A stretch of 48,579 nucleotides of DNA from Myxococcota bacterium (GTDB lineage Bacteria; Myxococcota_A; Polyangia; Polyangiales; Houyiibacteriaceae): contig JALOQC010000024.1 in assembly GCA_025453555.1 (NCBI GenBank), forward strand, positions 1-48,579, written 5' to 3'. Below, piece after piece: positions 4,340-32,840 of this stretch. The translations under genes were made by a program, and so were the position numbers. The notes under the pieces were generated by a model. It was not told the origin of the DNA, made no database searches, and saw only the letters and a list, made by a program, of their open reading frames with translations. How positions within the stretch are numbered: position 1 is the first letter of the stretch; each line of letters begins with the position of its first letter.

Positions 4340-4350
4340 TCTTCTTTTCG

Positions 4351-4437
4351 GAGGGGCGGTCCGGCGCCCCTCCCCCATCGGGCAAAGCCCGAGTGGGGCC
4401 CCCTCCACCCACCCGTCCGCGGGGTCAGCCTGCGGAC
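4351..4437 (+). other. Cluster of stem-loops in the groES-groEL intercistronic region
   Basis: GAGGGG-N10-CCCCTC (4351-4372); CCCCA.CGGGC-AAA-GCCCG..TGGGG (4373-4398); GTCCGC-GGGGTCAGCCT-GCGGAC (4415-4437). Confidence 0.7.
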
Positions 4438-4548: not shown

Positions 4549-6204
4549 ATGGCTGCAAAGCAGATGCGTTACGGGACCGACGCGCAGCGCCGCATCGGTC
4601 GTGGTGTCGATGCCCTCGCCAACGCGGTGAAGGTCACGCTCGGGCCGAAGGGCCGCAACGTCGTGATCGAGAAGAGCTGGGGCTCGCCGAAGATCACGAA
4701 GGACGGCGTGACCGTCGCCAAGGAGATCGAGCTCTCCGACAAGTTCGAGAACATGGGCGCACAGATGGTGCGCGAGGTCGCCAGCAAGACGGTGGACGTC
4801 GCGGGCGACGGCACCACGACCGCGACCGTGCTCGCGCAGGCGATCTACCGCGAAGGCGCGAAGATGGTCGCCGCGGGTCACAACCCGATGGACCTCAAGC
4901 GCGGCGTCGACAAGGCGGTCGAGGTCGTCGTGAAGTCGCTCGAGAAGCTCAGCCGCAAGGTCGAGGGCGCCAAGGAGATCGAGCAGGTCGGCACGATCAG
5001 CGCGAACGGCGACGAGACGGTCGGCAAGCTCCTCGCGGAAGCGATGGAGAAGGTCGGCAAGGAAGGCGTCATCTCGGTCGAAGAAGCGAAGGGCATGGAG
5101 ACGATCCTCGAGGTCGTCGAAGGCATGCAGTTCGACCGCGGCTACCTCTCGCCCTACTTCGTCACGGACACCGAGCGCATGGAGTGCGTGCTCGACGATC
5201 CGTACATCCTCTTCTACGAGAAGAAGCTCTCGAACATGCGCGACCTCGTCCCGCTGCTCGAGCAGGTCGTCAAGCAGCAGAAGTCGCTGCTCCTCGTCGC
5301 GGAGGACGTCGAGGGCGAAGCGCTCGCGACGCTCGTCGTCAACCGCCTGCGCGGCACCCTGAAGATCGCGGCCGTCAAGGCGCCGGGCTTCGGTGATCGC
5401 CGCAAGGAGATGATGAAGGACATGGCCATCCTCACGGGTGGTGAGGTCATCTCCGAGGATCTCGGCATGAAGCTCGAGAGCGTCACGCTCAAGCAGCTCG
5501 GCCGCGCCGCCAAGGTGAAGATCGACAAGGACAACACCACGATCGTCGACGGTCAGGGCAAGAAGGCGGACATCAAGGGCCGCACCGACCTGCTCCGCCG
5601 CCAGATCGAGGAGACCACCAGCGACTACGATCGCGAGAAGCTCCAGGAGCGCCTCGCGAAGCTCGCGGGCGGCGTCGCGGTGATCAAGGTCGGCGCGGCG
5701 ACCGAGGTGGAGATGAAGGAGCGCAAGGACCGCGTCGACGACGCGCTCCACGCGACGCGCGCGGCGAGCCAGGAAGGCATCGTCCCGGGCGGCGGCGTGG
5801 CGCTCGTTCGTGCGCAGGCCGCGCTCGACAAGATGCAGGGTCTCTCCGACGAGGAGCTCATCGGCGTCCGCATCGTGCGCCGCGCCCTCGAGGAGCCCCT
5901 CCGCCAGATCGCGCAGAACGCCGGCCTCGAAGGCTCGGTCGTCGTGGACAAGGTCCGCGCTGGGAAGGGCGCGTTCGGCTTCGACGCGCGCGCCGAGGAG
6001 TACGTCGACCTGCTCGCCCGCGGCATCCTCGACCCGACCAAGGTCGTCCGCACCGCGCTGCAGAACGCGGCGAGCGTCTCCGGCCTCCTCCTCACCACCG
6101 ACGCGCTGATCGCGGAGCTTCCGAAGGACGAGAAGCCGGCGGCCGGCGGCCACGGCGGCGGCGGCATGGGTGGCATGGGCGGCATGGACGACATGGACTT
6201 CTGA
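4549..6204 (+). CDS. groEL: Chaperonin GroEL
   Basis: 551 aa, canonical GroEL with [47 protein letters not shown] and C-terminal GGM-type tail [16 protein letters not shown]. Confidence 0.99.
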
Positions 6205-19851: not shown

Positions 19852-19875
19852 GTCGGCAGCTGACCCCGCCGAACC
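19852..19875 (-). repeat. Degenerate copy of the GTCGGCGGGGTCAGCCGCCGAC palindrome
   Basis: GTCGGCAGCTGACCCCGCCGAACC (reverse strand GGTTCGGCGGGGTCAGCTGCCGAC), intergenic. Confidence 0.6.
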
Positions 19876-19901
19876 AGTGAAACGGTCCGAAGCCGTCGCC
19901 T

Positions 19902-21290
19902 TCAGAAGCAGTCGGTGTCGGAGCAGAGACAACGCTGCACGACCGTGAACGCGGCCTCCGGACCTTCCCACGCCCAGAGGTCGTCGGGGTTGGCCGGCGT
20001 TCCCGTCCACGTCACCAGGAGCGTGCGATCGTCGCGCGCGACCACGTCGACCGCCGTGATCGGGAGACGAAGTCCCTCGGCGATCGGCATGCGCATCGAC
20101 TCGCGCACCTCGAGTCCGTCCTCGACGCGATGCACGACGACCAGCGTGGGCGAGCTCGCACCCTGCTCCACGATGGCGACCACGAAGCCCTCGGAGGCGC
20201 TGACCGTCGGCGGCAGGGAAGCGACCCGCGACGGCACTGAGCTGCGCCGCGGACTCACCGTCACGCGCGCACCTTCGGCCCCCGTGATCCCACGCAGCTC
20301 GAGCTCGACCACCCCACCGATCTCGGAACGATCGCGGCAGTCTTGGGCGATCGCGACGCGACCATCGGTCGCCGCGACGGCGTCGAAGCTCTCCACGCCG
20401 CAGCTCGTGCCCGCGATCCCGACCGTCTCGGAGCCGAGCTGCACGAGCTGCACGGTGGGCGGGAAGTCCCAGCCTTGAATCGCCGCGATCCACGCGCTGC
20501 CATCGACCACCCGCGGCGCGCGCACCCCATCGACCACGAAGAGGTCGTCGTAGGTCACGGTGGTCCCGCTCTCGTCGACCGCCACGACCTGCAGATCGTC
20601 GAAGTAGCCTTCTTCGTCGGCGGCTTCGGGCAGATGCACGATCGCGATCCGGGAAGCGCGCGTCGGGATCGCGTGATCGCCGAGCGGGGCGACGTCGACC
20701 ACGCGACGCGCGGCGTAGATCGGATCCGAGAAGTCGAAGGTGCCGTCGTTCTGCCACCCCTCGCGGCGCAGCGGACGCCACTGCCACGCGACCTGCGCGT
20801 CGCTCACCGAGGTCAGCAGCAGGTTCGACGAGCTGCCGGCCTTGCGCGCGTCGAGGCGCGCGGTGGTCACGGCGTCGGACCAATACGCCGGCATCACGAA
20901 GGACGTCTCGAGGACGGCGGTGCGCGGGTCGGTGCCGATCGTCGCCTCCATCACGACCGGGCACGCGCCGTCACACGGGCTCGGGTTGCCGTTGAGGAAC
21001 GCGAGGTAGAACGTCGACCCGTCGTGATCGACGACCGCGGGCACGGTCGCCGACGCGTCGAAGAACGTGGGCGTGAGCGGAGGCATCCAGCCGCCGGGGA
21101 GACACGTGTCGATCCCCGCGTCGCCTCCGTCGGGCTCGAAGCCGCACGCGTCGGACATGCAGAAGGGAGCGTCCTCGAAGGATGCGTCCGCCAGACCTGC
21201 GTCCGGATCTCCGTCGGGGGTGAGCGCCTCGAACGAGCGGCCGCAGCCGAGCACGAAGAGCAGCGCGAAGAAGCACGAAGAGAAGCGCAT
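19902..21290 (-). CDS. Lipoprotein, unknown function
   Basis: MRFSSCFFALLFVLGCGRS lipobox; Asp-rich spacer PDGDPDAGLADA; ends QRCLCSDTDCF. Confidence 0.8.
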   Translation of the reverse strand: MRFSSCFFALLFVLGCGRSFEALTPDGDPDAGLADASFEDAPFCMSDACGFEPDGGDAGIDTCLPGGWMPPLTPTFFDASATVPAVVDHDGSTFYLAFLNGNPSPCDGACPVVMEATIGTDPRTAVLETSFVMPAYWSDAVTTARLDARKAGSSSNLLLTSVSDAQVAWQWRPLRREGWQNDGTFDFSDPIYAARRVVDVAPLGDHAIPTRASRIAIVHLPEAADEEGYFDDLQVVAVDESGTTVTYDDLFVVDGVRAPRVVDGSAWIAAIQGWDFPPTVQLVQLGSETVGIAGTSCGVESFDAVAATDGRVAIAQDCRDRSEIGGVVELELRGITGAEGARVTVSPRRSSVPSRVASLPPTVSASEGFVVAIVEQGASSPTLVVVHRVEDGLEVRESMRMPIAEGLRLPITAVDVVARDDRTLLVTWTGTPANPDDLWAWEGPEAAFTVVQRCLCSDTDCF

Positions 21291-21296
21291 GAAGAT

Positions 21297-21323
21297 CTCC
21301 GAGCCGCCGATGCGGCTCCGGAG
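21297..21323 (-). promoter_or_regulatory. Hairpin sequestering the Shine-Dalgarno of the 19902-21290 lipoprotein gene
   Basis: Minus-strand RNA CTCCG-G-AGCCGC-AUCG-GCGGCU-CGGAG followed by AUCUUC-AUG; GGAG lies in the 3' arm. Confidence 0.6.
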
Positions 21324-21571
21324 GTCAGGCACGTCACGGACGCAGAACGGCTCAACACGAGGGGCGAGCCGCCGTGCCTCGACACCCAACGTTGCCTCGC
21401 CGACGAACGACGCTGCGTCACGAGCTGCGCCGTGAACCCTGACGCGGACGGAGACGGCGTGGACACCAACGGGGCGCTCGGTGACGGCGGCGCAGCGCTC
21501 AGCACGGAGACCCCCGTGAGCGCGATCGGACTGCCGTGAGGCGGAAGTGATCCGCGAGCGGCGTCACGCGA

Positions 21572-22081
21572 TCAGCGCAGCGTCACGTTGCGGGGCGCGA
21601 TCGTCGCCGTGAAGCTGGCTTCGCTCACGGAGCCCTCCACCGTCGCGGCGCCGCTCGCGAAGAGCGGCAGCTCGATGGTGCCGCTCTGGAAGAAGTCGCC
21701 TTCGCGGCGCATCACCCACGCGAGATCGGTCGTGAACTCTCCGTCGGTCGTGGTGATCCGGAGCTGCACGTTGGCGCAGACCTCGTCTTCGGCGTCGCTC
21801 GGCAGCGCAGGCACGCGCACGACGGGGAGCAACATGTCCGAGCCCTGGAAGCCGCGGACGATCGTCGCGTCGGCTCCCTCGCTCCAGGGCACGAAGACCT
21901 CGTCCTGGAGCTCGCCGACCTCGACGGTGCGCTCGGCGGGGAGCGCGGCGTCGCCGGGTCGGTAGCTGCATCGCTCGGCCGAGCCGCGCGGGCCGCTCGG
22001 GCCGGGATCGCAGAGGCACGCGCCCGAGAGCACGACGCCCAAGAGCACGAACGAGCCTGCGATCCAGCCGAGTGTCCTCAT
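21572..22081 (-). CDS. Small lipoprotein, unknown function
   Basis: MRTLGWIAGSFVLLGVVLSGACLCDPG lipobox; 169 aa. Confidence 0.75.
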   Translation of the reverse strand: MRTLGWIAGSFVLLGVVLSGACLCDPGPSGPRGSAERCSYRPGDAALPAERTVEVGELQDEVFVPWSEGADATIVRGFQGSDMLLPVVRVPALPSDAEDEVCANVQLRITTTDGEFTTDLAWVMRREGDFFQSGTIELPLFASGAATVEGSVSEASFTATIAPRNVTLR

Positions 22082-22296
22082 GGAGATTCTCGTGAGAAAC
22101 GAAGAACGAACATCGATCGATCACCGATCGATCACCGTCGATCTCGGATCAATCACGGTGCAATCACCGATGAATCGCTCGAGCATCGCTCGAAGATCCA
22201 TCGGTAATCGCACGCCGTTCGATGGTTCGGTCGCCTGACGGCGACGCTCACGGTGCCGCGAGTCGCTCGGCCTGGCGGCCGGCTCGAAAACGGCAC

Positions 22297-23376
<1,080 letters not shown>

Positions 23377-23413
23377 TTGGGTCGCCAGGTTGCCGCGGCG
23401 CCTGGCGCGCATC

Positions 23414-23438
23414 AAGTCGGCGGCTGACCCCGCCGACC
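23414..23438 (-). repeat. GTCGGCGGGGTCAGCCGCCGAC palindrome copy, 38 bp upstream of serC start
   Basis: AAGTCGGCGGCTGACCCCGCCGACC; 8-bp arms GTCGGCGG/CCGCCGAC, 6-nt loop. Confidence 0.85.
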
Positions 23439-23521
23439 CGGTCGAGAGGTCGGCCGACGTACGGGGACGCCGGACCGAGGAACGATCGGCGAGGCACCGG
23501 CTCGTCGATGCGCGGACTCGC

Positions 23522-24772
23522 TCAACGAGAACGCCAGCCGATCGCCAACGCCGCCCCGAAGGAAAACGCCTCCACGCGGTGCACGACTCGGTCGTCGATC
23601 GTGAAGCGTGGGCGGTGAGGCTGCGCGCCGAGCGACACCGAAGGCCGAAGCTCGAGACCGCGCCCGAGCCGCGCGATCGCCGCCAGCTCGAGCTGCGCGC
23701 TGGCGAACGGAGCGCGCGCGACGCGGTCGTCCTCGGTGCCTTCGCCTTCGGCGCGGACGAAGCGCGCGAATCCGCCGACGCAGGCTTCGACGCGGAGGGT
23801 CCGAGGTCGCGACGCGACGCAGAGCTGCGCGCCGAGGGAGGACGCGCGGTAGTGGGCGCGGACGTCGTCCATCGCGTCGGGATCGAGGGCATTGGGGTCG
23901 ATCGTGTCGGTGCGGGAGAGGCCGACCGACGCGAGGGCCCGGACGCGCCAGCGCGGCCCCGAGACACCGAGCGCGAGGCCGGGCGCGAGGCTCGGGGTCG
24001 GCAGGAGGCCGGTGTCGACGGCGAAGGTGAGGGCGAGGTCGAAGGTGGTGTCTGCGTCGGAGTCCGCGTCTGAATCCGTGACCGTGCCCGTGTCGGAGCT
24101 CGTGTCCGTCTCCGTCTCCGTCTCGGTCTCCGTCTCGGTCTCCGTCTCGGTCTCCGTCTCGGTCTCCGTCTCGGTCTCCGTCTCGGTCTCCGTCTCTGTC
24201 TCCGTCTCTGTCTCCGTCTCGGTCTCCGTCTCGGTCTCCGTCTCTGTCTCCGTCTCTGTCTCCGATTCCGTCTCCGTCTCGGTCGCCGTCTCGGTGCCCG
24301 TCTCCGTCTCCGTTCTCGTGCCGACGCCGGCGGTCGTGCTCCCTCCGGAGCCGCCGGTGACCGGGTCGGTCGGGTCGCTCTCCGCGCGCACCTCGACCCC
24401 GCCGCCGTACGCGAGCGCGAGCACCAGGGTCGCCGCGCGCGCGAGATCGCGGCACTCGCGCGCGTGCACCCGACGGCTCCCCGAGACCCCACCGAGCCGC
24501 GTATCGAGCACCAACACGAAGCGCGCGCCGTCGCGCCGGATCTCGCCTCGCGCGTGAAGCGTCTGCAGCACCACGGACTCGCGCACCACCAACGCGCGCG
24601 CGAGCTCGCCCCGCACCGCGGCTTCGTCGGGACAGCCCGGCGGCGCGCTCCACGTCAGCTCCAGCGGCAACGTCCGCGCGGGGGACGCGAGCCCGCTCGC
24701 GCTCTCTGCGCTCTGTGCGTGCGCGGACGCCACGAGCACCGAACCGATCACGAAGGCGAGAAACGCACGCAA
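23522..24772 (-). CDS. Exported protein with long (Thr-Glu)n linker and C-terminal beta-rich domain
   Basis: Signal peptide [26 protein letters not shown]... array; C-terminal [25 protein letters not shown]...[12 protein letters not shown] resembling an OM barrel. Confidence 0.75.
24100..24318. repeat. Hexanucleotide (6/12-bp) coding minisatellite
   Basis: (GTCTC[C/G])n on the + strand, encoding roughly 30+ TE dipeptides on the minus strand. Confidence 0.95.
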
Positions 24773-24890
24773 GACGGACGAGGGTAGCGCAGACCGTTCG
24801 GTGCGCCGTTCGCGTCGCGCCGTTCGCGTGACACCTTGTCGCCTCGCGGCGTGTCACCTCGCGCCCGTCACGTCGTGTGTCGCCCTCGCG

Positions 24891-25946
24891 TCACGTCGCG
24901 CGGCCCGCCGTGTCACGTCGCGCGCCGCGCCACGTCACGAGCGCGATCCCGCAGAACACCGCGAGGGTCCCGAGCCCCGCGCGGAGCCCGAGCGGCTCGT
25001 CGAGCACCGTCACCGCGAGCGCGAGCCCCACGATCGGCTGCAGGTAGATGAAGATCGCGACCGTCGACGAGCTCGCGTAGCGGAGCGCCCACGCGTTGAG
25101 CAGGTACGTGAGCAGCGTCGGCACCGCGAGCACGTAGAGCAAGAGGAGCCACGCGTGCGCACCCGCGCTGGTCACTCCGTCGAGCTGGCTCACACCGAAG
25201 GGCAACACCGCGAGCGTGGACGCGCCGAAGCCGATCGCCACGATTGGGAGCGTGCCGTAGCGCGCGACGTACGGCCGCACGAGCACGAGGTAGAAGGCGT
25301 AGCAGAGCGCGTTGGCGACGATCATCGCGTCGCCGAGGAGCGAGCTCGCCGCGAGCTCGAAGCGCTCGACCTTCACCAGCGCGAGCACCCCCGCGAAGGC
25401 GACGACGAGCCCGAGCACTCCGCGCGCGGTCGCGCGTTCGATCCCGAGCCCGAGCGCGACGAGGAAGGTGAAGATCGGGATCGTGGTGACGAGCACCGTC
25501 GCGTTGGTCGCGCTCGTGCGCTCGAGCCCGCCGAGGAAGAGGAGCTGGTTGGCGGCCATGCCGAGCAGACCGCAGCCGGCGATGCGCAGCACGTCTCCGA
25601 ACGGAATGCGCACTTTCGTCGCCGAGTCGGCGGGGTCAGCCGCCGACTTCTTGCCTTGGTCGGCGGGGTCAGCCGCCGACTTCTTGCCTTGGTCGGCGGG
25701 GTCAGCCGCCGACTTCGCGCGCAGCATCACGAGCGCGCCGAAGAAGATCGTCGCACCCGCGACCCGCACGAGCGAGAGCCCGAAGGGCCCCACGTGCTCC
25801 ATCGCGAGCTTGCCCGCGACGGGCAGCGTGCCGAACGCGATCTGCACCAGCACGAGCGCGGCCGAGACGGTGTGCGGCTTCGGCGAGGGCGCGACCACGG
25901 TCGCCGACGTCACGAGCGGAGCGGGAGCGGGAACGGCGGTGCTCAC
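24891..25946 (-). CDS. EamA/DMT-superfamily transporter carrying an in-frame repeat insert
   Basis: Ten-TM-like EamA pattern (LVQIAFGTLPVAGKLAMEHVGPFGLSLVRVAGATIFFGALVML..., RTSATNATVLVTTIPIFTFLVALGLG, PIVGLALAVTVLDEPLG); insert [33 protein letters not shown] start proposed. Confidence 0.85.
   Translation of the reverse strand: MSTAVPAPAPLVTSATVVAPSPKPHTVSAALVLVQIAFGTLPVAGKLAMEHVGPFGLSLVRVAGATIFFGALVMLRAKSAADPADQGKKSAADPADQGKKSAADPADSATKVRIPFGDVLRIAGCGLLGMAANQLLFLGGLERTSATNATVLVTTIPIFTFLVALGLGIERATARGVLGLVVAFAGVLALVKVERFELAASSLLGDAMIVANALCYAFYLVLVRPYVARYGTLPIVAIGFGASTLAVLPFGVSQLDGVTSAGAHAWLLLLYVLAVPTLLTYLLNAWALRYASSSTVAIFIYLQPIVGLALAVTVLDEPLGLRAGLGTLAVFCGIALVTWRGARRDTAGRAT
25626..25715. repeat. 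Three tandem copies (33-bp period) of the GTCGGCGGGGTCAGCCGCCGAC palindrome inside a CDS
   Basis: GTCGGCGGGGTCAGCCGCCGACTTCTTGCCTTG repeated at 25626, 25659 and 25692. Confidence 0.95.
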
Positions 25947-26001
25947 GGCGCGCGGAGCATGGCGCCGCGCCGGACGCTCGGCGAGGTGATACACACGCGC
26001 G

Positions 26002-26712
26002 ATGCGTTCGCTCCCGGCTGTCTTCGTCACGTCGATCGGTGTGCTCTTCGGAACGGGTTGCTTCCTCACCTCGCCCACTCCGCCGCTGCGCATCGACGAC
26101 CACGCGACCCTCGGGCCTTCGCGCGCGGACGCGCTCGTCGTCTTCCTGCCCGGCTTCGGCGACGACGGCGGCGTCTTCGATCGCTACGGCCTGATCGACG
26201 CGGTGCGCGCGCACGGGCGCTACGACGCGGTCGGCGCCCACGCGCACTTCGGCTTCTACCGAGACTTCGCGGTGATGCCGCGCCTCGAAGAAGATCTCGT
26301 CGGTCCCGCGCGCGCGATGGGCTACCGAAAGGTCTGGCTCGTCGGCACCTCGATGGGCGGCTTCGGCGCGCTCTCCTACGCGGCCAGGCACCCGCGTGAC
26401 GTCGCGGGCGTAGTGATGATGGCGCCTTACCTCGGGGAGCCCTCCGTGCTCGACGAGATCCGCGCGCAGGGTCTCGACGGGTGGGAGCCCGGCGACGTCG
26501 ACGCGATGGAGGACGGCCGCGAGAAGGTCACGCGACGCAACTGGCGCTTCGTGCGCGAGCAGCTCGCGCGACCCGAAGGCGGCGTGCCGGAGTTCGAGCT
26601 CCTCGCGGCGGCGCTCCCCGAAGGTCGCGTCTTCCATCGTCCGGGCGGCCACGGTTGGGCGACGTGGAGCCCGCTCTTCGACACGATCTTGGAGAGCACC
26701 CCGGAGCTCTGA
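26002..26712 (+). CDS. Alpha/beta-hydrolase lipoprotein
   Basis: MRSLPAVFVTSIGVLFGTGCFLTS lipobox; VWLVGTSMGGFGALSYA nucleophile elbow. Confidence 0.85.
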   Translation: MRSLPAVFVTSIGVLFGTGCFLTSPTPPLRIDDHATLGPSRADALVVFLPGFGDDGGVFDRYGLIDAVRAHGRYDAVGAHAHFGFYRDFAVMPRLEEDLVGPARAMGYRKVWLVGTSMGGFGALSYAARHPRDVAGVVMMAPYLGEPSVLDEIRAQGLDGWEPGDVDAMEDGREKVTRRNWRFVREQLARPEGGVPEFELLAAALPEGRVFHRPGGHGWATWSPLFDTILESTPEL

Positions 26713-26748
26713 GTCGGAAGATCGGCGGCGACGCGAGCGCGATCGTCA

Positions 26749-26822
26749 GGGTCGTCGTGAACGTGGTCGTGAACGTGGTCGGTCGTGGTCGTGGACGTGG
26801 ACGGCGACGTGATCGGCGACGA
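26749..26822. repeat. Low-complexity GTCGTGAACGTG/GTGGTCGTGGACGTGG array
   Basis: Degenerate 6/12-bp periodicity in the intergenic region; resembles the reverse complement of 30721-30780. Confidence 0.6.
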
Positions 26823-26962
26823 AAGCCGAGAGCGGAGTCCCGAAGCCACGAGCGTGTCGTTGCCATGAACGGCGACGTACGAGTCGAGAATCCGTGCGAC
26901 CTCGCGCTCACGATCCGCCCGCTTTTTTCGGGTCGTTCGCTGCATCGGGTACGTTCGCCCCG

Positions 26963-29171
26963 ATGCGCGCGCTCCTCTGCCTCCTGCTCTCGGTCGGCTG
27001 CTCCAGCGCCGCGCCGACGCTCACGCCGTCCACGACGACTGCGGCGGCTCCCGCCGATCGCACGAACGATCCCGCGCGCGCCCCGACGACACCGAGCGAT
27101 GCCGTCGCCGCGAACGCACCCGCGACGCCCCCGCCGGTACGCGTCCGCTACGACCTCGCGCGCCACGCCGATCGCGCCGATCGTTTCTTCGGAAGCACCC
27201 ACGTGCTCGACCTCACCGGCCTCGACGGCGCCCGCGCGACCCGAGGCGGCTGGCGCACCGGCTTCTCCCGCGCGCGCTTCGACGACGCGGACGCGCTCGT
27301 CAGCGAAGGTCGCCAAGGACGTCTGATCTTCGGCCGCGTCCGCGCCGCCGAACGCGACGTGCGCGCGCGCTTCGTGGGTCGCGCCGCGGTGCCGGGCGCG
27401 ATCGCGGTTTACCTCGACGGCGAGGAGCTCGCGCCGATCACGCTGCCCACCGATGCGTGGGGCAGCGCGGAGGTCGTGCTCCCGCGCACGCGGCTCGGCG
27501 CGGGCGAGCACGAGCTGCTCCTCCGCGCGGCGGGCTCGCGCACCGTCGACGGCATGCGCGGTCGCGTGGGCCTCGCGTTGCGCGAGCTGCAGCTCGTCGA
27601 AGGCGACGACGTCGCCGAGCTCGCACCGCTCGCCCACGAAGAGGACGGCGTGCGAGGCCTGAAGCTCGCTGCGCGCGAGACCGCCGGCTTCGTCGCGGAG
27701 GTCGCGGAGGGCGAACGTCTGCGCGCGATCGTGCGTGGCGAAGGCCGCGCGATCGTCCGGGCGGTGCGCGAGACGGCGAGCGGCACGACGAGCGGCACCG
27801 AGACGATCGAGCTCGCGCGGCTCGAAGCCAACGCGCAGGGCCAGACGCTCGACGTGGATCTCTCGCGCGCAGTGGGCGTCTCGCGCCTCGAGCTCACGGC
27901 CGAGGGAGGCGCGCTGCGTCTGCTCGCGCCCGCGATCGTGGCCCCGCTCCCCGAAGGTACCGCGCCCCCGCGCCCGATCCGCAACGTGCTCCTCGTGCTC
28001 GTCGACACCCTGCGCGCCGACAAGCTCGGCCCCTACCGCCAAGACACGCGCGTGCAGACGCCCGGCCTGCTTCGCTTCGCGGAGCGCGCGAGCACGATGC
28101 TGCACGCGCACTCGCAGGAGAACTGGACCAAGCCGAGCGTCGCGACGCTGCTCTCGTCGCTCATGCCCTGGGAGCACGCGACCACCCAACACGAGTCGGT
28201 GGTCCCGCGCACGGTGCGCATGCTCCCCGAGATCCTGAAAGACGACGGCTTCCACACGGGAGCCTTCATCTGCAACGGCTACGTCTCCGATCGTTTCGGC
28301 TTCGGCCGTGGCTGGAGCACTTACCGCAATTACATCCGCGAAGGTCGCCGCACGATGGCGGAGTTCGTGGCGGCCGACGTCCTGCAATGGCTCGACGCGC
28401 GCCCCACCGACAAACCGTTTTTCCTCTACGTACACACCATCGATCCGCACGTGCCCTACCGACCGCCGGCCGAGCACCTCGCGCTCTACGGCGACCCGAG
28501 CTACCGCGGCCGCGTCGACTTCTCGCGCGACGCCACGCTGCTCGAGAACGTGAAGCTCGGGCGCCTGCGCCTCGACGATCGCGACAAGGCGCACCTCCAA
28601 GCGCTCTACGACGGCGAGATCACCTACACCGACGTGCACTTCGCCGCGATCCTCGACGGCCTCGATCGCCGCGGCCTCTCCGACGACACGATGGTCGTGC
28701 TCACGAGCGATCACGGCGAAGAGTTCTGGGACCACGGCTCGGTCGGCCACGGTCGACGTGATGCCCACGATCCTCGAAGCGCTCGGTCGCCCCCTCCCCG
28801 AGAACCTCTCCGGCCGCAGCTTCCTGCCCTCCCTGCGCGGCGCCGGCTACGACGCGCCCCAAGCCACCGTCAGCGGCTTCATGGAGCATTGGCGCACCGT
28901 CAACGTCGGCCGCTACAAGCTCGTCCAGCGCCCCGGACACCCGCCCGTCCTCTACGATCTCGCGGAAGATCCGGGCGAGAACACCAACGTCGCCGGCGCG
29001 CATCCGCTCATCCTCGGCTGGCTCCGCGGCCTGCTCGGCGCGTCGCTGGACGCCACCCGCGGCGCGAGCACGCCGACCGCTGCGCGTCGTCCGACGCACG
29101 CCGCCGAGACCACCGCGATCGATCCCGAGACCGCGGCGCAGCTCCGCGCGCTCGGCTACGTGGGCGACTGA
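26963..29171 (+). pseudogene. Sulfatase/alkaline-phosphatase-superfamily lipoprotein disrupted by an internal frame-shifting deletion
   Basis: MRALLCLLLSVGCSS...NVLLVLVDTLRADKLGPY...TSDHGEEFWDHGSVGHG in frame 2, then VDVMPTILEALGRPLPENLSGRSFLPSL...YDLAEDPGENTNVA...QLRALGYVGD in frame 3 from about 28752. Confidence 0.75.
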
Positions 29172-29221
29172 GCTCGTCGCAGACAAATCGCGCTCATCGC
29201 GTTTGCGCCGCTTCGCTCCGA

Positions 29222-30469
29222 TCAGGGAGTCGTCGGCGCGGAGCTCGGCGCAGGCTCCGCGGCAGGCGTGGTTGCCACAGCCGGAGCTGGGGCCGGAGCT
29301 GGGGCTGAAGCTGGGGCCAGCGTCTCGACCGGCGTCGCTTCCGGGACGGGCTCCTCCACCACCTCCTCGATCACGATCTCCTCGACCACCTCTTCGGTCG
29401 GCGGCGGGGCGACCGGTTCCTGCACGCTCGTGCGCACCCCGAGCGTCACGTACACGCTCTGAACCAGCGAGGTGTTTCGGCCCCAGAGCGTGCGGTTGTA
29501 TCCGACGTTGATCTCGACGTTGTCCGTGATCTTCACGATCCCGCCCACCGCGAGCTCGAGCCAGTCGCGATCGAGCGTGACCGTGCGGAGCGCGAGGTTG
29601 TTCAGACCGACGTACTCGCTCGCCGGCAACGTCGGATCGATCGCCGCGACGCTGACGCCGATCACGCGTCCCTGCTGCCACGCGTAGGCGAGGCGGGTGT
29701 CTGCGTAGAGCAAGAGCCGCCGCCCGAGAAGCTGCCCCGCCTTCACCGACGCGAGGATCTGATCGCCGGCCCCGCCGAGCCGAAGGTCGTAGCCCGCGTC
29801 CACGCGGATGAAGGTGCGCGAGGGCAACGAAACGCCGAAGAGGATCGAGAGCCCGAGGTCGACCTGACCGTCGCCGAGGGTGACGTCGTCCTGGACGTTC
29901 TCGGGACGCACCAGCTCGCCGACTCGATCGAGGAAGTCCTGTTGATTGCGCGGACGGTCACCGAAGGTCCCCGAAGGTCCGTCGTATCCGGCGGGCGCTT
30001 TCAATCGACCTTCAATCGCGAGCGCGACTGGCCACCGGATCAGATTGTAGCGACCGAACAATCGAATGTCGCCGACGCCTTGAACGGTCTGACTCAGATC
30101 GAGCACGTTCTCCTGGTAGAAGTCGATCCCTTCTTCCCCGCCCGCCGACGAGGCTGGGACCAAGATCACCGGATCGGCCTGGTAGCTCACGAGCTTGAAC
30201 GGCACTTGGATCTCGAGCTCCAGCCGGTCGCTGAAACCCGCGCGCACCCCGAGGCTCATGGTCGAGCCGCGGAAGCTCCCGTCCAACGAGAAGGGCACGT
30301 CGCGTCCCGCGTCGTCGAGGTACTCGCGCGTCGCCCACGCTTGGTCGTAGGCCGCGGTGACGGCGATCTCGCCCCGCCGCAACGTCCACGGCGACGCGCT
30401 CGCGGGTGCGGCGAGGAGCCACGCGCCCACCATCACGACCGCCCCGATCCAACTCGCTCGCGCCGTCAT
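29222..30469 (-). CDS. Outer-membrane beta-barrel protein with Glu/Val and Pro/Ala C-terminal tail
   Basis: Signal peptide MTARASWIGAVVMVGAWLLAAPASA; LELEIQVPFKLVSYQ, GDIRLFGRYNLI, LELAVGGIVKITDNVEINVGYNRTLWG strands; tail EEVVEEIVIEEVVEEPVPEATP. Confidence 0.8.
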   Translation of the reverse strand: MTARASWIGAVVMVGAWLLAAPASASPWTLRRGEIAVTAAYDQAWATREYLDDAGRDVPFSLDGSFRGSTMSLGVRAGFSDRLELEIQVPFKLVSYQADPVILVPASSAGGEEGIDFYQENVLDLSQTVQGVGDIRLFGRYNLIRWPVALAIEGRLKAPAGYDGPSGTFGDRPRNQQDFLDRVGELVRPENVQDDVTLGDGQVDLGLSILFGVSLPSRTFIRVDAGYDLRLGGAGDQILASVKAGQLLGRRLLLYADTRLAYAWQQGRVIGVSVAAIDPTLPASEYVGLNNLALRTVTLDRDWLELAVGGIVKITDNVEINVGYNRTLWGRNTSLVQSVYVTLGVRTSVQEPVAPPPTEEVVEEIVIEEVVEEPVPEATPVETLAPASAPAPAPAPAVATTPAAEPAPSSAPTTP

Positions 30470-30489
30470 CGATCCTCCACCACCTCGAA

Positions 30490-30715
30490 CACCGACACCG
30501 ACTCGGACACCGACCCGGACTCACTGACTCGGACACTGACTCGGACACGGACACGGACACGGACTCGGACACTGACTCGGACACTGACTCGGACACTGAC
30601 TCGGACACTGACTCGGACACTGACTCGGACACTGACTCGGACACTGACTCGGACACTGACTCGGACACCGACTCGGACACTGACTCGGACTCCGACTCCG
30701 ATTCGGACTCACTCT
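30490..30715. repeat. 12-bp minisatellite (ACTGACTCGGAC)n, intergenic
   Basis: About 15 near-perfect units in the gap between the OM-protein start (30469) and kinase stop (30795). Confidence 0.9.
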
Positions 30716-30794
30716 TCGACGTCGTCGCCGTTGACGTCGCCGTTCACGACCACGACCACGACCACGTCCACGATCACGAGCTCGTCGTCGCCGC

Positions 30795-32456
30795 TCAGAA
30801 CGTCACGAAGCCCGGACGGGTCGGCGTGTTCGTCGCCGGCCGCCGCACCACGCGTCGCACCGTACGGGTCATGGGCGTGCTCGGTTCGGTCGTCGGCGCA
30901 GAAGCGCTCGGAGCGCTCGGGTTGTCCGCGCTCGGCGCGTTCGCGGCGGCCGCCGTCGGCGCGGAGGCGCTCGGCGTGTCCACACTCGGCACGCTCGGCG
31001 CGACGATCGTGTCCTCGGGCACGCTCGGCGTCGCGCTCGCGACGTCGTCCGTCGCGTCCACCTCGCCGACCTCCTCACGCTCCACGTCAGACTCCACGCT
31101 CGGGGCCACCTCGCGCCCTCGCGCCATCGACGTCGCGCGTCGCACGCTCACCTCGGGCGCGGGTCCCGGCCCGTCGTCGAACGCATCGCGTCGCTCCTCG
31201 CCGTCGTCCGTCGGTTCGGGCGCGTCGGCCGGCGGCGGTGGCTCTTCCGTCGCGGGTCCGCCCGAGCGCTCCGCGGCGACGATCGGTTCCTCCGACGAAT
31301 CGCTCGAAGACGCGACCGACGGCACGCTCGAAGCCGGCGCGGTCGCGCCCTCCGACGCGCGGGTCCACGCCCATGCGCCGAGCCCACCGATCGCGAGCAA
31401 CACGATCGCGGCGATCGGCGCCCACGAGCGCTGCGGCAGGTCGATGCGCCGCAACCCACTCGACGACGGCGTCGCGCTCCCTTCGTCGAGCGTCTCGTCC
31501 GCGCGCACGCGCAACTCGATCGGCGCCGCGTCACCCGAGGTCGGCCGCGAGCTCAGCCGAAACGGAGGCGTCGCCGCAAAGCCGTCGATCGTATTCACCA
31601 CCTCGGGTCGCGCGAGCAGGGCACCGAGCAGCGCCTCCAGCTCGCCGGCGTCGCGCGGACGTCGGCTCGGATCCTTCAGCAGGCACCGCTCGACCAACGC
31701 GAGCAGGTCTGGATGCAGCTCCGGCGCGCGCTCCGCGAGCGGCACGTGGGCCTCCGTCGCGACCGCGATGATCACCGCGTGCGGCGTGTCTCCGTCGAAC
31801 GGCAGCTCTCCACAGAGCGCCTCGTACATCATCACACCGAACGACCAGACATCCGTCGGCTGGCTCGCGAGCCGCGGCTTCGTCGCCTGCTCGGGGCTCA
31901 TGTACACCGGCGTGCCGACCGCCACGCCCGTCGCGGTCTTCGACTTCGCGTGCTCGTCGATGTCGCGCGCGATGCCGAAGTCGAGCAACCTCACGCGCCC
32001 GCGATCGTGCCGATCGAGCACGAAGACGTTCTCCGGCTTCAGATCGCGGTGCACGATCCCGAGCCGGTGCGCCACCGCGAGCGGACCGAGCGCCTCGAGC
32101 AGGAGCTCCATCGCGAGCGCGCGGGGACGCCCCGGCGTCTCCCACCATCCTTCGAGACTGTCGCCGTAGAGGCGCTCCATCGCGAGGAAGAGCCGACCGT
32201 CCGGGAGCTGACCCCAGTCGAAGATCTCGGGCACCGCGGGGTGCTCGATGCGCCGCGCGAGCTCCACCTCGCGCTCGAAGCGCGTCAGCGCCATCTCGTG
32301 CTCGGCGACCTCCGCGTGGAGGATCTTCAGCGCGACCACGCGCCCATCCGCGTCCGTCGCTTCGTACACCGCGCCCATCGAGCCACGACCGATCAGCGAG
32401 CCGAGCTCGTAGCGCTCGATCTCGGGAACGTTCGATGCTCGAAGGGCCTCCGTCAC
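30795..32456 (-). CDS. Transmembrane Ser/Thr protein kinase (PknB-like)
   Basis: YELGSLIGRGSMGAVYEA, ALKIL, GIVHRDLKPENVFV, LLDFGIARD, GTPVYMSPEQ, DVWSFGVMMYEAL; TM helix SWAPIAAIVLLAIGGLGAWAW; low-complexity Ser/Pro/Ala extracytoplasmic tail. Confidence 0.95.
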   Translation of the reverse strand: MTEALRASNVPEIERYELGSLIGRGSMGAVYEATDADGRVVALKILHAEVAEHEMALTRFEREVELARRIEHPAVPEIFDWGQLPDGRLFLAMERLYGDSLEGWWETPGRPRALAMELLLEALGPLAVAHRLGIVHRDLKPENVFVLDRHDRGRVRLLDFGIARDIDEHAKSKTATGVAVGTPVYMSPEQATKPRLASQPTDVWSFGVMMYEALCGELPFDGDTPHAVIIAVATEAHVPLAERAPELHPDLLALVERCLLKDPSRRPRDAGELEALLGALLARPEVVNTIDGFAATPPFRLSSRPTSGDAAPIELRVRADETLDEGSATPSSSGLRRIDLPQRSWAPIAAIVLLAIGGLGAWAWTRASEGATAPASSVPSVASSSDSSEEPIVAAERSGGPATEEPPPPADAPEPTDDGEERRDAFDDGPGPAPEVSVRRATSMARGREVAPSVESDVEREEVGEVDATDDVASATPSVPEDTIVAPSVPSVDTPSASAPTAAAANAPSADNPSAPSASAPTTEPSTPMTRTVRRVVRRPATNTPTRPGFVTF

Positions 32457-32460
32457 GTCC

Positions 32461-32512
32461 TCACCTGCTCGCGCGCCGCGTGGCCCTCACCTGCTCGCGC
32501 GCCGCGTGGCCT
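32461..32512. repeat. 26-bp tandem duplication
   Basis: TCACCTGCTCGCGCGCCGCGTGGCC[C/T] at 32461-32486 and 32487-32512. Confidence 0.85.
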
Positions 32513-32789
32513 CTGTGGCCACCGCTGGCGTACGTCCAGAACCGCCGGCGCGTTTCGTCAAAACGACACGCTGCGCCTCGTCGCGCCGCCAGTGCACGTC
32601 GATCGCGCGCCCCGCGCTCATCGCCACGAGCTGCAGATGCTCGGCGACCTGCGCGCACGGCAGATGCTCGAGCTCCTTCAAGAGCTCGGCGACCCAACGA
32701 AGCGTCGTGGGATCCAGCAGCTCGTGCCGATGGCTCTCGTGGGCGAGCGCGGCGTCACGGTGCAGGGGCGTGGGGATGGCTCTGGTCAC
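32487..32789 (-). CDS. Hypothetical protein
   Basis: GTG-start ORF VTRAIPTPLHRDAALAHESHRHELLDPTTLRWVAELLKELEHLPCAQVAEHLQLVAMS..., not contradicted by a better ORF on the opposite strand. Confidence 0.4.
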   Translation of the reverse strand: MTRAIPTPLHRDAALAHESHRHELLDPTTLRWVAELLKELEHLPCAQVAEHLQLVAMSAGRAIDVHWRRDEAQRVVLTKRAGGSGRTPAVATEATRRASR

Positions 32790-32816
32790 GTTCGGCCTCC
32801 AGGACTTCTCGACCCA

Positions 32817-32840
32817 GTCGGCGCGGTCAGCCGCCGACTT
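32817..32840 (+). repeat. GTCGGCGGGGTCAGCCGCCGAC palindrome copy (one mismatch), intergenic
   Basis: GTCGGCGCGGTCAGCCGCCGACTT. Confidence 0.75.

What the first reader, a model, noticed from the sequence alone, without database searches (positions are those of the whole stretch)
19852..32840. Dispersed REP-like palindrome family GTCGGCGG-GGTCAG-CCGCCGAC
The same about 24-bp palindrome (8-bp arms, 6-nt GGTCAG loop) occurs at 23414-23438, 25626-25715 (x3), 32817-32840 and, degenerate, at 19852-19875, with a structurally related copy at 4415-4437. It appears both intergenically and within a CDS and in both orientations. It may be a mobilised small palindromic element (REP/RPE-like), perhaps mobilised by the RAYT-like protein in this window. 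Repetition and symmetry are read from the sequence; the mobility mechanism is inference.
Basis: partly seen in the sequence, partly recalled or inferred. Interest (0 to 1): 0.8.

Follow-up and report, generated by a model that had tools for sequence, protein, structure and literature searches.

The report
A 33-bp hairpin repeat invading genes
One myxobacterial genome has been invaded by hundreds of copies of a 33-letter DNA hairpin unit that slots, usually in frame, into genes and gaps at sites resembling its own ends, and since neither searched-for HUH transposase family was found, it gives a clean case for asking how such repeats move.

Summary
The palindrome family is real. Six copies (<=3 mismatches) lie in the window against 0 expected. 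The genome holds 429 copies (<=2 mismatches; reversed control 0), a sister species of the genus one, and 182 other genomes of the order none.

The insertion unit is not the palindrome alone but 33 bp: an 11-bp 5' segment X plus a 22-bp hairpin (8-bp stem, constant GGTCAG loop, stems varying by compensated changes). Orthologous empty sites show clean gains of exactly 33 bp, and 99 bp for one three-unit array, without target-site duplication, at sites like CGAC^TTC or CGAC^GGA. X's first bases match the target. Arrays are head-to-tail with period 33. Single copies are as intact as arrayed ones, unlike REPINs. About half of the sites lie inside predicted genes (84% expected); clear in-gene copies favour two frames, encoding SAGSAAD or SAADPAD.

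The RAYT link is not supported: no Y1 or Y2 HUH transposase domain was detected in this 89%-complete genome. The hairpin resembles the last hairpin of an older 89-bp repeat (window 4350-4437).

Best reading: a REP-like, non-autonomous hairpin element outside the GTAG and CGTC superfamilies, moving as single-stranded DNA. The enzyme is unknown; microhomology template switching remains a serious rival.

The parts
25615..25713 (+). three tandem 33-bp units (X + hairpin), 99 bp, inside an EamA-family transporter gene on the - strand (ORF 24891-26093); encodes ...[35 protein letters not shown]...
   Evidence: (EamA, E 1.4e-35); the G001 orthologue lacks the array (residual -3 after removing 99 bp, alignment locally gapped)
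25626..25647 (+). hairpin 1 GTCGGCGG-GGTCAG-CCGCCGAC
   Evidence: exact
25659..25680 (+). hairpin 2
   Evidence: exact
25692..25713 (+). hairpin 3
   Evidence: exact
25648..25658 (+). internal X segment TTCTTGCCTTG, identical to 25681-25691
23416..23448 (-). one 33-bp unit (hairpin 23416-23437, X 23438-23448) preceded on its strand by target-like CGAC (23449-23452); appears intergenic, upstream of an ORF starting near 23376
32806..32838 (+). one unit (X 32806-32816, hairpin 32817-32838, one arm mismatch), preceded by GGAC
19852..19884 (-). degenerate unit (hairpin 19852-19873 with 2 mismatches, X 19874-19884)
4350..4437 (+). older composite ~89-bp repeat of three hairpins, ending in a compensated-stem GGTCAG hairpin (4415-4437); upstream of the cpn60 gene at 4549

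Best explanation
This is a non-autonomous, REP-like mobile hairpin element whose insertion unit is a single 33-bp module: 11-bp 5' segment X (consensus KKMTCSACCGR) plus a 22-bp perfect hairpin with a constant GGTCAG loop, ending in CGAC. SHOWN: it burst in one species; copies lie at sites that are empty in a sister species; clean insertions add 33 bp (99 bp for three units) at CGAC^KKM-like sites without target-site duplication; X's first bases match the target; insertion re-creates the target motif at both ends; within-locus spacer identity shows that most arrays grew by local tandem duplication. INFERRED: the element moves as folded single-stranded DNA, cut after CGAC at both ends and pasted after a CGAC-like tetranucleotide, with X acting as a guide as the segment 5' of the hairpin does in IS200/IS605 and REP systems, catalysed in trans by an unidentified nuclease. 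Copies between genes or in frame in tolerant protein regions survive. The hairpin probably derives from the last hairpin of an older 89-bp composite repeat of the genus.
For: Copy number and restriction. Insertion length and junctions: at seven loci, removing the unit(s) leaves a co-linear alignment with the orthologue, residual 0 (six +33, one +99); others among the 15 compared leave -3 or, in gappy regions, -15 to -27. The retained target is the downstream 11 bp (74/110 identical to the orthologue), not X (47/110). Target motif before insertion: the orthologue reads CGACTTC at the L058 site and GGAC|GGA at L147. X-target matching; X positions 1-4, 6 and 8 carry information on target class above every shuffle, and position 10 less strongly. 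Hairpin constraint: five stem types, 8/8 paired, 5 of 8 pairs with compensated changes; GGTCAG is the loop of 172 of the perfect 8-bp/6-nt hairpins in 1.43 Mb, next best 13 (part of that sample was chosen for the element). Arrays: 72 of 80 spacings are exactly 33. Singles 78% perfect against 74% in arrays; 80 direct and 1 inverted neighbour pair. Coding filter: 56/117 sites inside predicted genes against 98.6 expected; 28/36 clear in-gene sites in two of six frames, p 6e-8. Origin. Guide precedent: PMC8266576.
Against: No enzyme found: Y1_Tnp and Y2_Tnp are not detected and no gene flanked by copies looks like a nuclease. X matches the target imperfectly: the first two bases agree at about 58% of loci (from the counts). 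No orientation bias expected of lagging-strand insertion was seen, but the test is weak. Compensated stems can arise by template-directed correction of palindromes without selection. Nothing here observes movement.
Confidence: 0.55

Rival explanations
1. Enzyme-free spread: during replication or repair a nascent strand ending in CGACTTC-like sequence switches to an existing unit by 4-9 nt of microhomology, copies X plus hairpin, and returns through the CGAC at the hairpin end. Hairpin-stalled forks drive it.
For: Both junctions show microhomology to the unit (CGAC on the left, first bases of X on the right); donors and targets match by type; local array growth is evident; no transposase found.
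Against: The same microhomology and hairpins would exist in the sister species and 182 other genomes, where no expansion occurred; boundaries are uniform (exactly 33) at unrelated loci.
Confidence: 0.25
2. Ordinary REP element mobilised by a RAYT (TnpA_REP) encoded in the unassembled part of the genome or recently lost.
For: Short perfect hairpin preceded by a fairly conserved tetranucleotide (YCGR), like group 3 REPs; single-strand guide logic fits; the genome is 89% complete.
Against: No Y1_Tnp in the genome or sister; no GTAG tag; head-to-tail single units instead of inverted doublets, and singles not decayed, unlike REPINs.
Confidence: 0.12
3. Functional binding site (for example for a chromosome-organising protein) multiplied because it is useful.
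For: Hairpin and loop strongly conserved; 33-bp spacing is about three helical turns.
Against: Present in one species; inserted inside unrelated genes in both orientations, without a common gene context.
Confidence: 0.06
4. Codon or k-mer background of a GC-rich genome.
For: Arms are GC-rich (sequence itself).
Against: 0 expected in shuffles; reversed control 0; 183 relatives of the order lack it apart from one copy; empty orthologous sites.
Confidence: 0.01

Closest known systems
REP elements of the GTAG superfamily / REPINs with RAYT (TnpA_REP)
   Same: 20-40 bp hairpins in hundreds of copies, mostly between genes, families differing in stems; a conserved short segment sits 5' of the hairpin
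   Different: no GTAG tag; insertion unit is one hairpin plus 11 bp; almost only head-to-tail arrays; singles not decayed; no Y1 transposase found
CGTC-tagged REPs, including Rickettsia RPE-4 and RPE-6 (PMC3733652)
   Same: short hairpins inserted in frame in genes; reported to lack a dedicated transposase
   Different: no unpaired CGTC tag, no AT pairs at the stem base, 6-nt instead of 4-5-nt loop, head-to-tail instead of head-head dimers
IS200/IS605-type single-strand transposition
   Same: insertion 3' of a short tetranucleotide without target duplication; a sequence 5' of the hairpin correlates with the target
   Different: no transposase or element ends of an IS; 33-bp unit with one hairpin
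PARCELs (PMC2996958)
   Same: palindromic DNA repeated in tandem within coding sequence and dispersed
   Different: those encode a 25-residue amphipathic motif in ORFs of unassigned function; this is an 11-residue filler in unrelated proteins and is also intergenic
CRISPR arrays
   Same: palindromic repeats at regular spacing
   Different: spacers 11 bp and mostly identical within an array, dispersed at many loci, inside genes

Membership tests
REP (GTAG superfamily) mobilised by RAYT | short hairpin in high copy number, mainly between genes | tested here: met
   429 copies; 52% of sites outside predicted genes, which cover 84% of the DNA
REP (GTAG superfamily) mobilised by RAYT | unpaired GTAG tetranucleotide at one end | tested here: not met
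   5' tetranucleotide is CCGR/TCGR/CTGG
REP (GTAG superfamily) mobilised by RAYT | Y1 (HUH) RAYT gene in the genome | tested here: not met
   PF01797 absent from G000 and G001, found in control genomes and in G010; the genome is 89% complete
REPIN | inverted pair of REPs is the replicating unit; singlets decayed | tested here: not met
   80 direct against 1 inverted neighbour pair; singles 78% and arrayed 74% perfect
CGTC REP / RPE | CGTC tag, AT at stem base, 4-5-nt loop, CCA tail | tested here: not met
   stem starts GTC/GAC, 6-nt GGTCAG loop, no consistent tag, compared with the description in PMC3733652
CGTC REP / RPE | in-frame insertions in functional-looking genes | tested here: met
   EamA, DabA; frame-biased peptides
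IS200/IS605-like single-strand element | insertion after a defined short target without target duplication | tested here: met
   the motif is loose (CGAC about 50-75% per position)
IS200/IS605-like single-strand element | HUH transposase acting on the hairpin | tested here: not met
   Y1_Tnp and Y2_Tnp not detected in the assembled genome; an unknown or missed enzyme is not excluded
IS200/IS605-like single-strand element | strand-specific cleavage of folded ssDNA | not testable with these tools
   needs biochemistry
CRISPR | unique spacers and cas genes beside the array | tested here: not met
   adjacent spacers match at 10.2 of 11 positions and arrays lie in unrelated genes; cas genes were not searched for

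The most novel reading that the evidence does not exclude
A 33-bp unit with a single hairpin is by itself the complete insertion module of a mobile DNA class that uses neither RAYT nor IS91-type enzymes, and its 11-nt 5' segment specifies the target, so that each insertion re-creates its own target and the class retargets by changing X.
Probability: 0.3. Interest if true: 0.85.

Novelty: new variant of a known kind. Interest (0 to 1): 0.62.

Why it matters
How REP-like hairpins spread is described as unresolved (PMC8266576). This burst is recent enough to leave near-identical copies, and a sister species keeps the empty sites, so the insertion rule can be read directly: unit length, junction, target motif, target matching and compensated stems. 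It contradicts the inverted-doublet rule of REPINs, offers a short list of testable cleavage positions, and is a clear case of a mobile repeat that adds 11-residue fillers to ordinary proteins.

Tried and rejected
11-bp or 3-bp target-site duplication: rejected, because X resembles the pre-insertion target only at its first bases and flank identity is far from complete. RAYT: searched, absent. IS91-type Y2 transposase: absent in G000, present in G001, which has no burst. A mobiliser gene flanked by copies: ten intervening or neighbouring proteins scanned, mostly housekeeping. The single G001 copy: intergenic; the query matched G000 almost only through the element itself. Lagging-strand bias: no signal in 31 pairs. 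An elevated-copy relative among 184 genomes of the order: none. Viral contigs: none. Rfam families in the window: none. Literature on palindromic repeats in myxobacteria: nothing matching found in the open library; subscription papers could not be searched.

Full report
OBSERVATION. The palindrome GTCGGCGG-GGTCAG-CCGCCGAC is present six times in the window with up to three mismatches, against none expected. The genome G000 (8.33 Mb, 699 contigs, about 89% complete) has 230 forward and 199 reverse copies with up to two mismatches, and none of the reversed control pattern. Only one exact copy exists in the one other species of the genus (G001; it matches the MAG ACE_MYX12, 'Myxococcales bacterium'), and the sporadic two-mismatch hits in other relatives look like chance. 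In 184 genomes of the order, the perfect hairpins of three stem types number 325 in G000, 1 in G001 and 0 elsewhere. Chance and codon bias are excluded.

THE UNIT. I fetched 1.3-1.4 Mb of G000 around copies and elsewhere. The stretch 5' of the hairpin is conserved for 15 positions (CGAC + KKMTCSACCGR), and the stretch 3' for about five. Arrays are head-to-tail, with 72 of 80 spacings exactly 33 bp. In 15 orthologous loci of G001, seven align co-linearly with residual length 0 once X(11)+hairpin(22) is removed: six times 33 bp, and once 99 bp for a three-unit array. The rest are off by 3 bp or lie in gappy regions, residuals -15 to -27; the EamA array of the window leaves -3 in a locally gapped alignment. 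At ten loci the orthologue's sequence matches the 11 bp downstream of the hairpin (74/110) much better than X (47/110). So the inserted piece is X+hairpin, between CGAC-like and KKM-like sequence, and X is not a target duplication. The target motif predates the insertion at some loci: G001 reads CGACTTC at the L058 site and GGAC|GGA at L147.

TARGET MATCHING. Within a locus, the first bases of X match the first bases of the retained target (positions 1-3: 0.66, 0.77, 0.60 against 0.42, 0.41, 0.37 expected; for the last internal spacer of arrays 0.94, 0.88, 0.76). Two main X types, TTCTYGMCCGR and GGATCCNTCGR-like, sit before TT and GG targets respectively; X positions 1-4, 6 and 8 carry mutual information with target class beyond every shuffle, and position 10 less strongly. 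This is what a guide segment, or donor choice by microhomology, would give. Adjacent internal spacers are nearly identical within an array (10.2 of 11 against 6.2 expected), so most arrays grew by local duplication.

HAIRPIN. Among perfect 8-bp hairpins with 6-nt loops in 1.43 Mb, GGTCAG is the loop 172 times; the next is GGCGAC with 13 (part of the sample was chosen for the element). Stem types GTCGGCGG (144), GTCGGCCG (12), GTCCGCGG (11) and CGCGGCGG (1), plus GCTCGCGG in G001, are all fully paired; five of eight pairs show compensated changes. This points to a folded single strand as the form that matters, though template-directed correction of palindromes could also keep arms matched.

GENES. 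56 of 117 sites lie inside predicted genes against 98.6 expected from the 84% coding fraction (gene calls are my own simple codon model). Of 36 clear in-gene sites, 28 are in two of six frames (p 6e-8 against one third, 4e-6 against two fifths), giving SAGSAAD or SAADPAD fillers of 11 residues per unit. Selection for harmless peptide is one cause; codon phase of the target (GAC|TTC) may be another. In the window the array adds three fillers to an EamA transporter; another triple array lies in a DabA gene.

ORIGIN. The window copy at 4415-4437 is the last hairpin of an 89-bp three-hairpin repeat, found about ten times full length in G000 and once in G001, where the terminal hairpin keeps the GGTCAG loop with another stem. 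The first two hairpins recur in other genera and families of the order. The 33-bp family plausibly arose from that terminal hairpin; this step is inference.

ENZYME. No Y1_Tnp (RAYT, IS200/IS605) and no Y2_Tnp (IS91) in G000, and no nuclease-like gene flanked by copies.

COMPARISON. Literature read: GTAG and CGTC REP superfamilies (PMC3733652), REPINs (PMC3116915), TnpA_REP guide logic (PMC8266576), PARCELs (PMC2996958). The element works like a REP or RPE, and its junctions look like single-strand insertion after a tetranucleotide, but it fails the defining tags of both REP superfamilies, the inverted-doublet rule, and the presence of a Y1 gene. I file it as a new variant of the REP-like kind. 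Of 96 single copies 78% are perfect, of 121 arrayed ones 74%, so the single unit behaves as the mobile entity.

LIMITS. Everything is comparative; no movement was observed. Flank statistics come from about a sixth of the genome, chosen partly for the element. The sister is about 75-83% identical at DNA level, so only coding sites could be aligned. Whether a nuclease or template switching does the job is undecided; I favour a nuclease because the burst is confined to one species and the unit boundaries are uniform.

Noticed in passing
window 4350-4437: Composite ~89-bp repeat of three hairpins (GGAGGGGC..GCCCCTCC, GGGCaaaGCCC, GGTCAG hairpin) upstream of the cpn60 gene; about ten full copies in the genome, relatives across the order (58 matches in G035, 19 in G005).
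   Followed up: partly
L038:4999-5020 and 116 other places of G000: Another hairpin family GAGGGKCT-GGCGAC-AGMCCCTC with compensated stem variants: 117 copies in G000, 32 in G001, 5 in G005 with loop GGCCAC; probably related to the composite repeat.
   Followed up: partly
window 24100-24320: Long run of GTCTCCGTCTCGGTC-type hexamer repeats inside an ORF (23522-24772, - strand); similar low-complexity tracts are common in the sister genome.
   Followed up: no
window 26745-26820: Short GTCGTGAACGTGGTC-like repeats between genes; the motif CACGTTCACGACCAC recurs at nine places in the fetched DNA.
   Followed up: no
L132:8956-9109: Five-unit array read in the alternative frame, giving [11 protein letters not shown]-type repeats instead of SAADPAD.
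   Followed up: no
L199:7442-7463: The only exact copy in the sister genome G001, intergenic beside an ORF that looks like argC by eye; no orthologous copy recognisable in G000.
   Followed up: partly
L191-L198 (G001): Y2_Tnp (IS91-type) domain matches occur eight times in the sister genome but not in G000.
   Followed up: no
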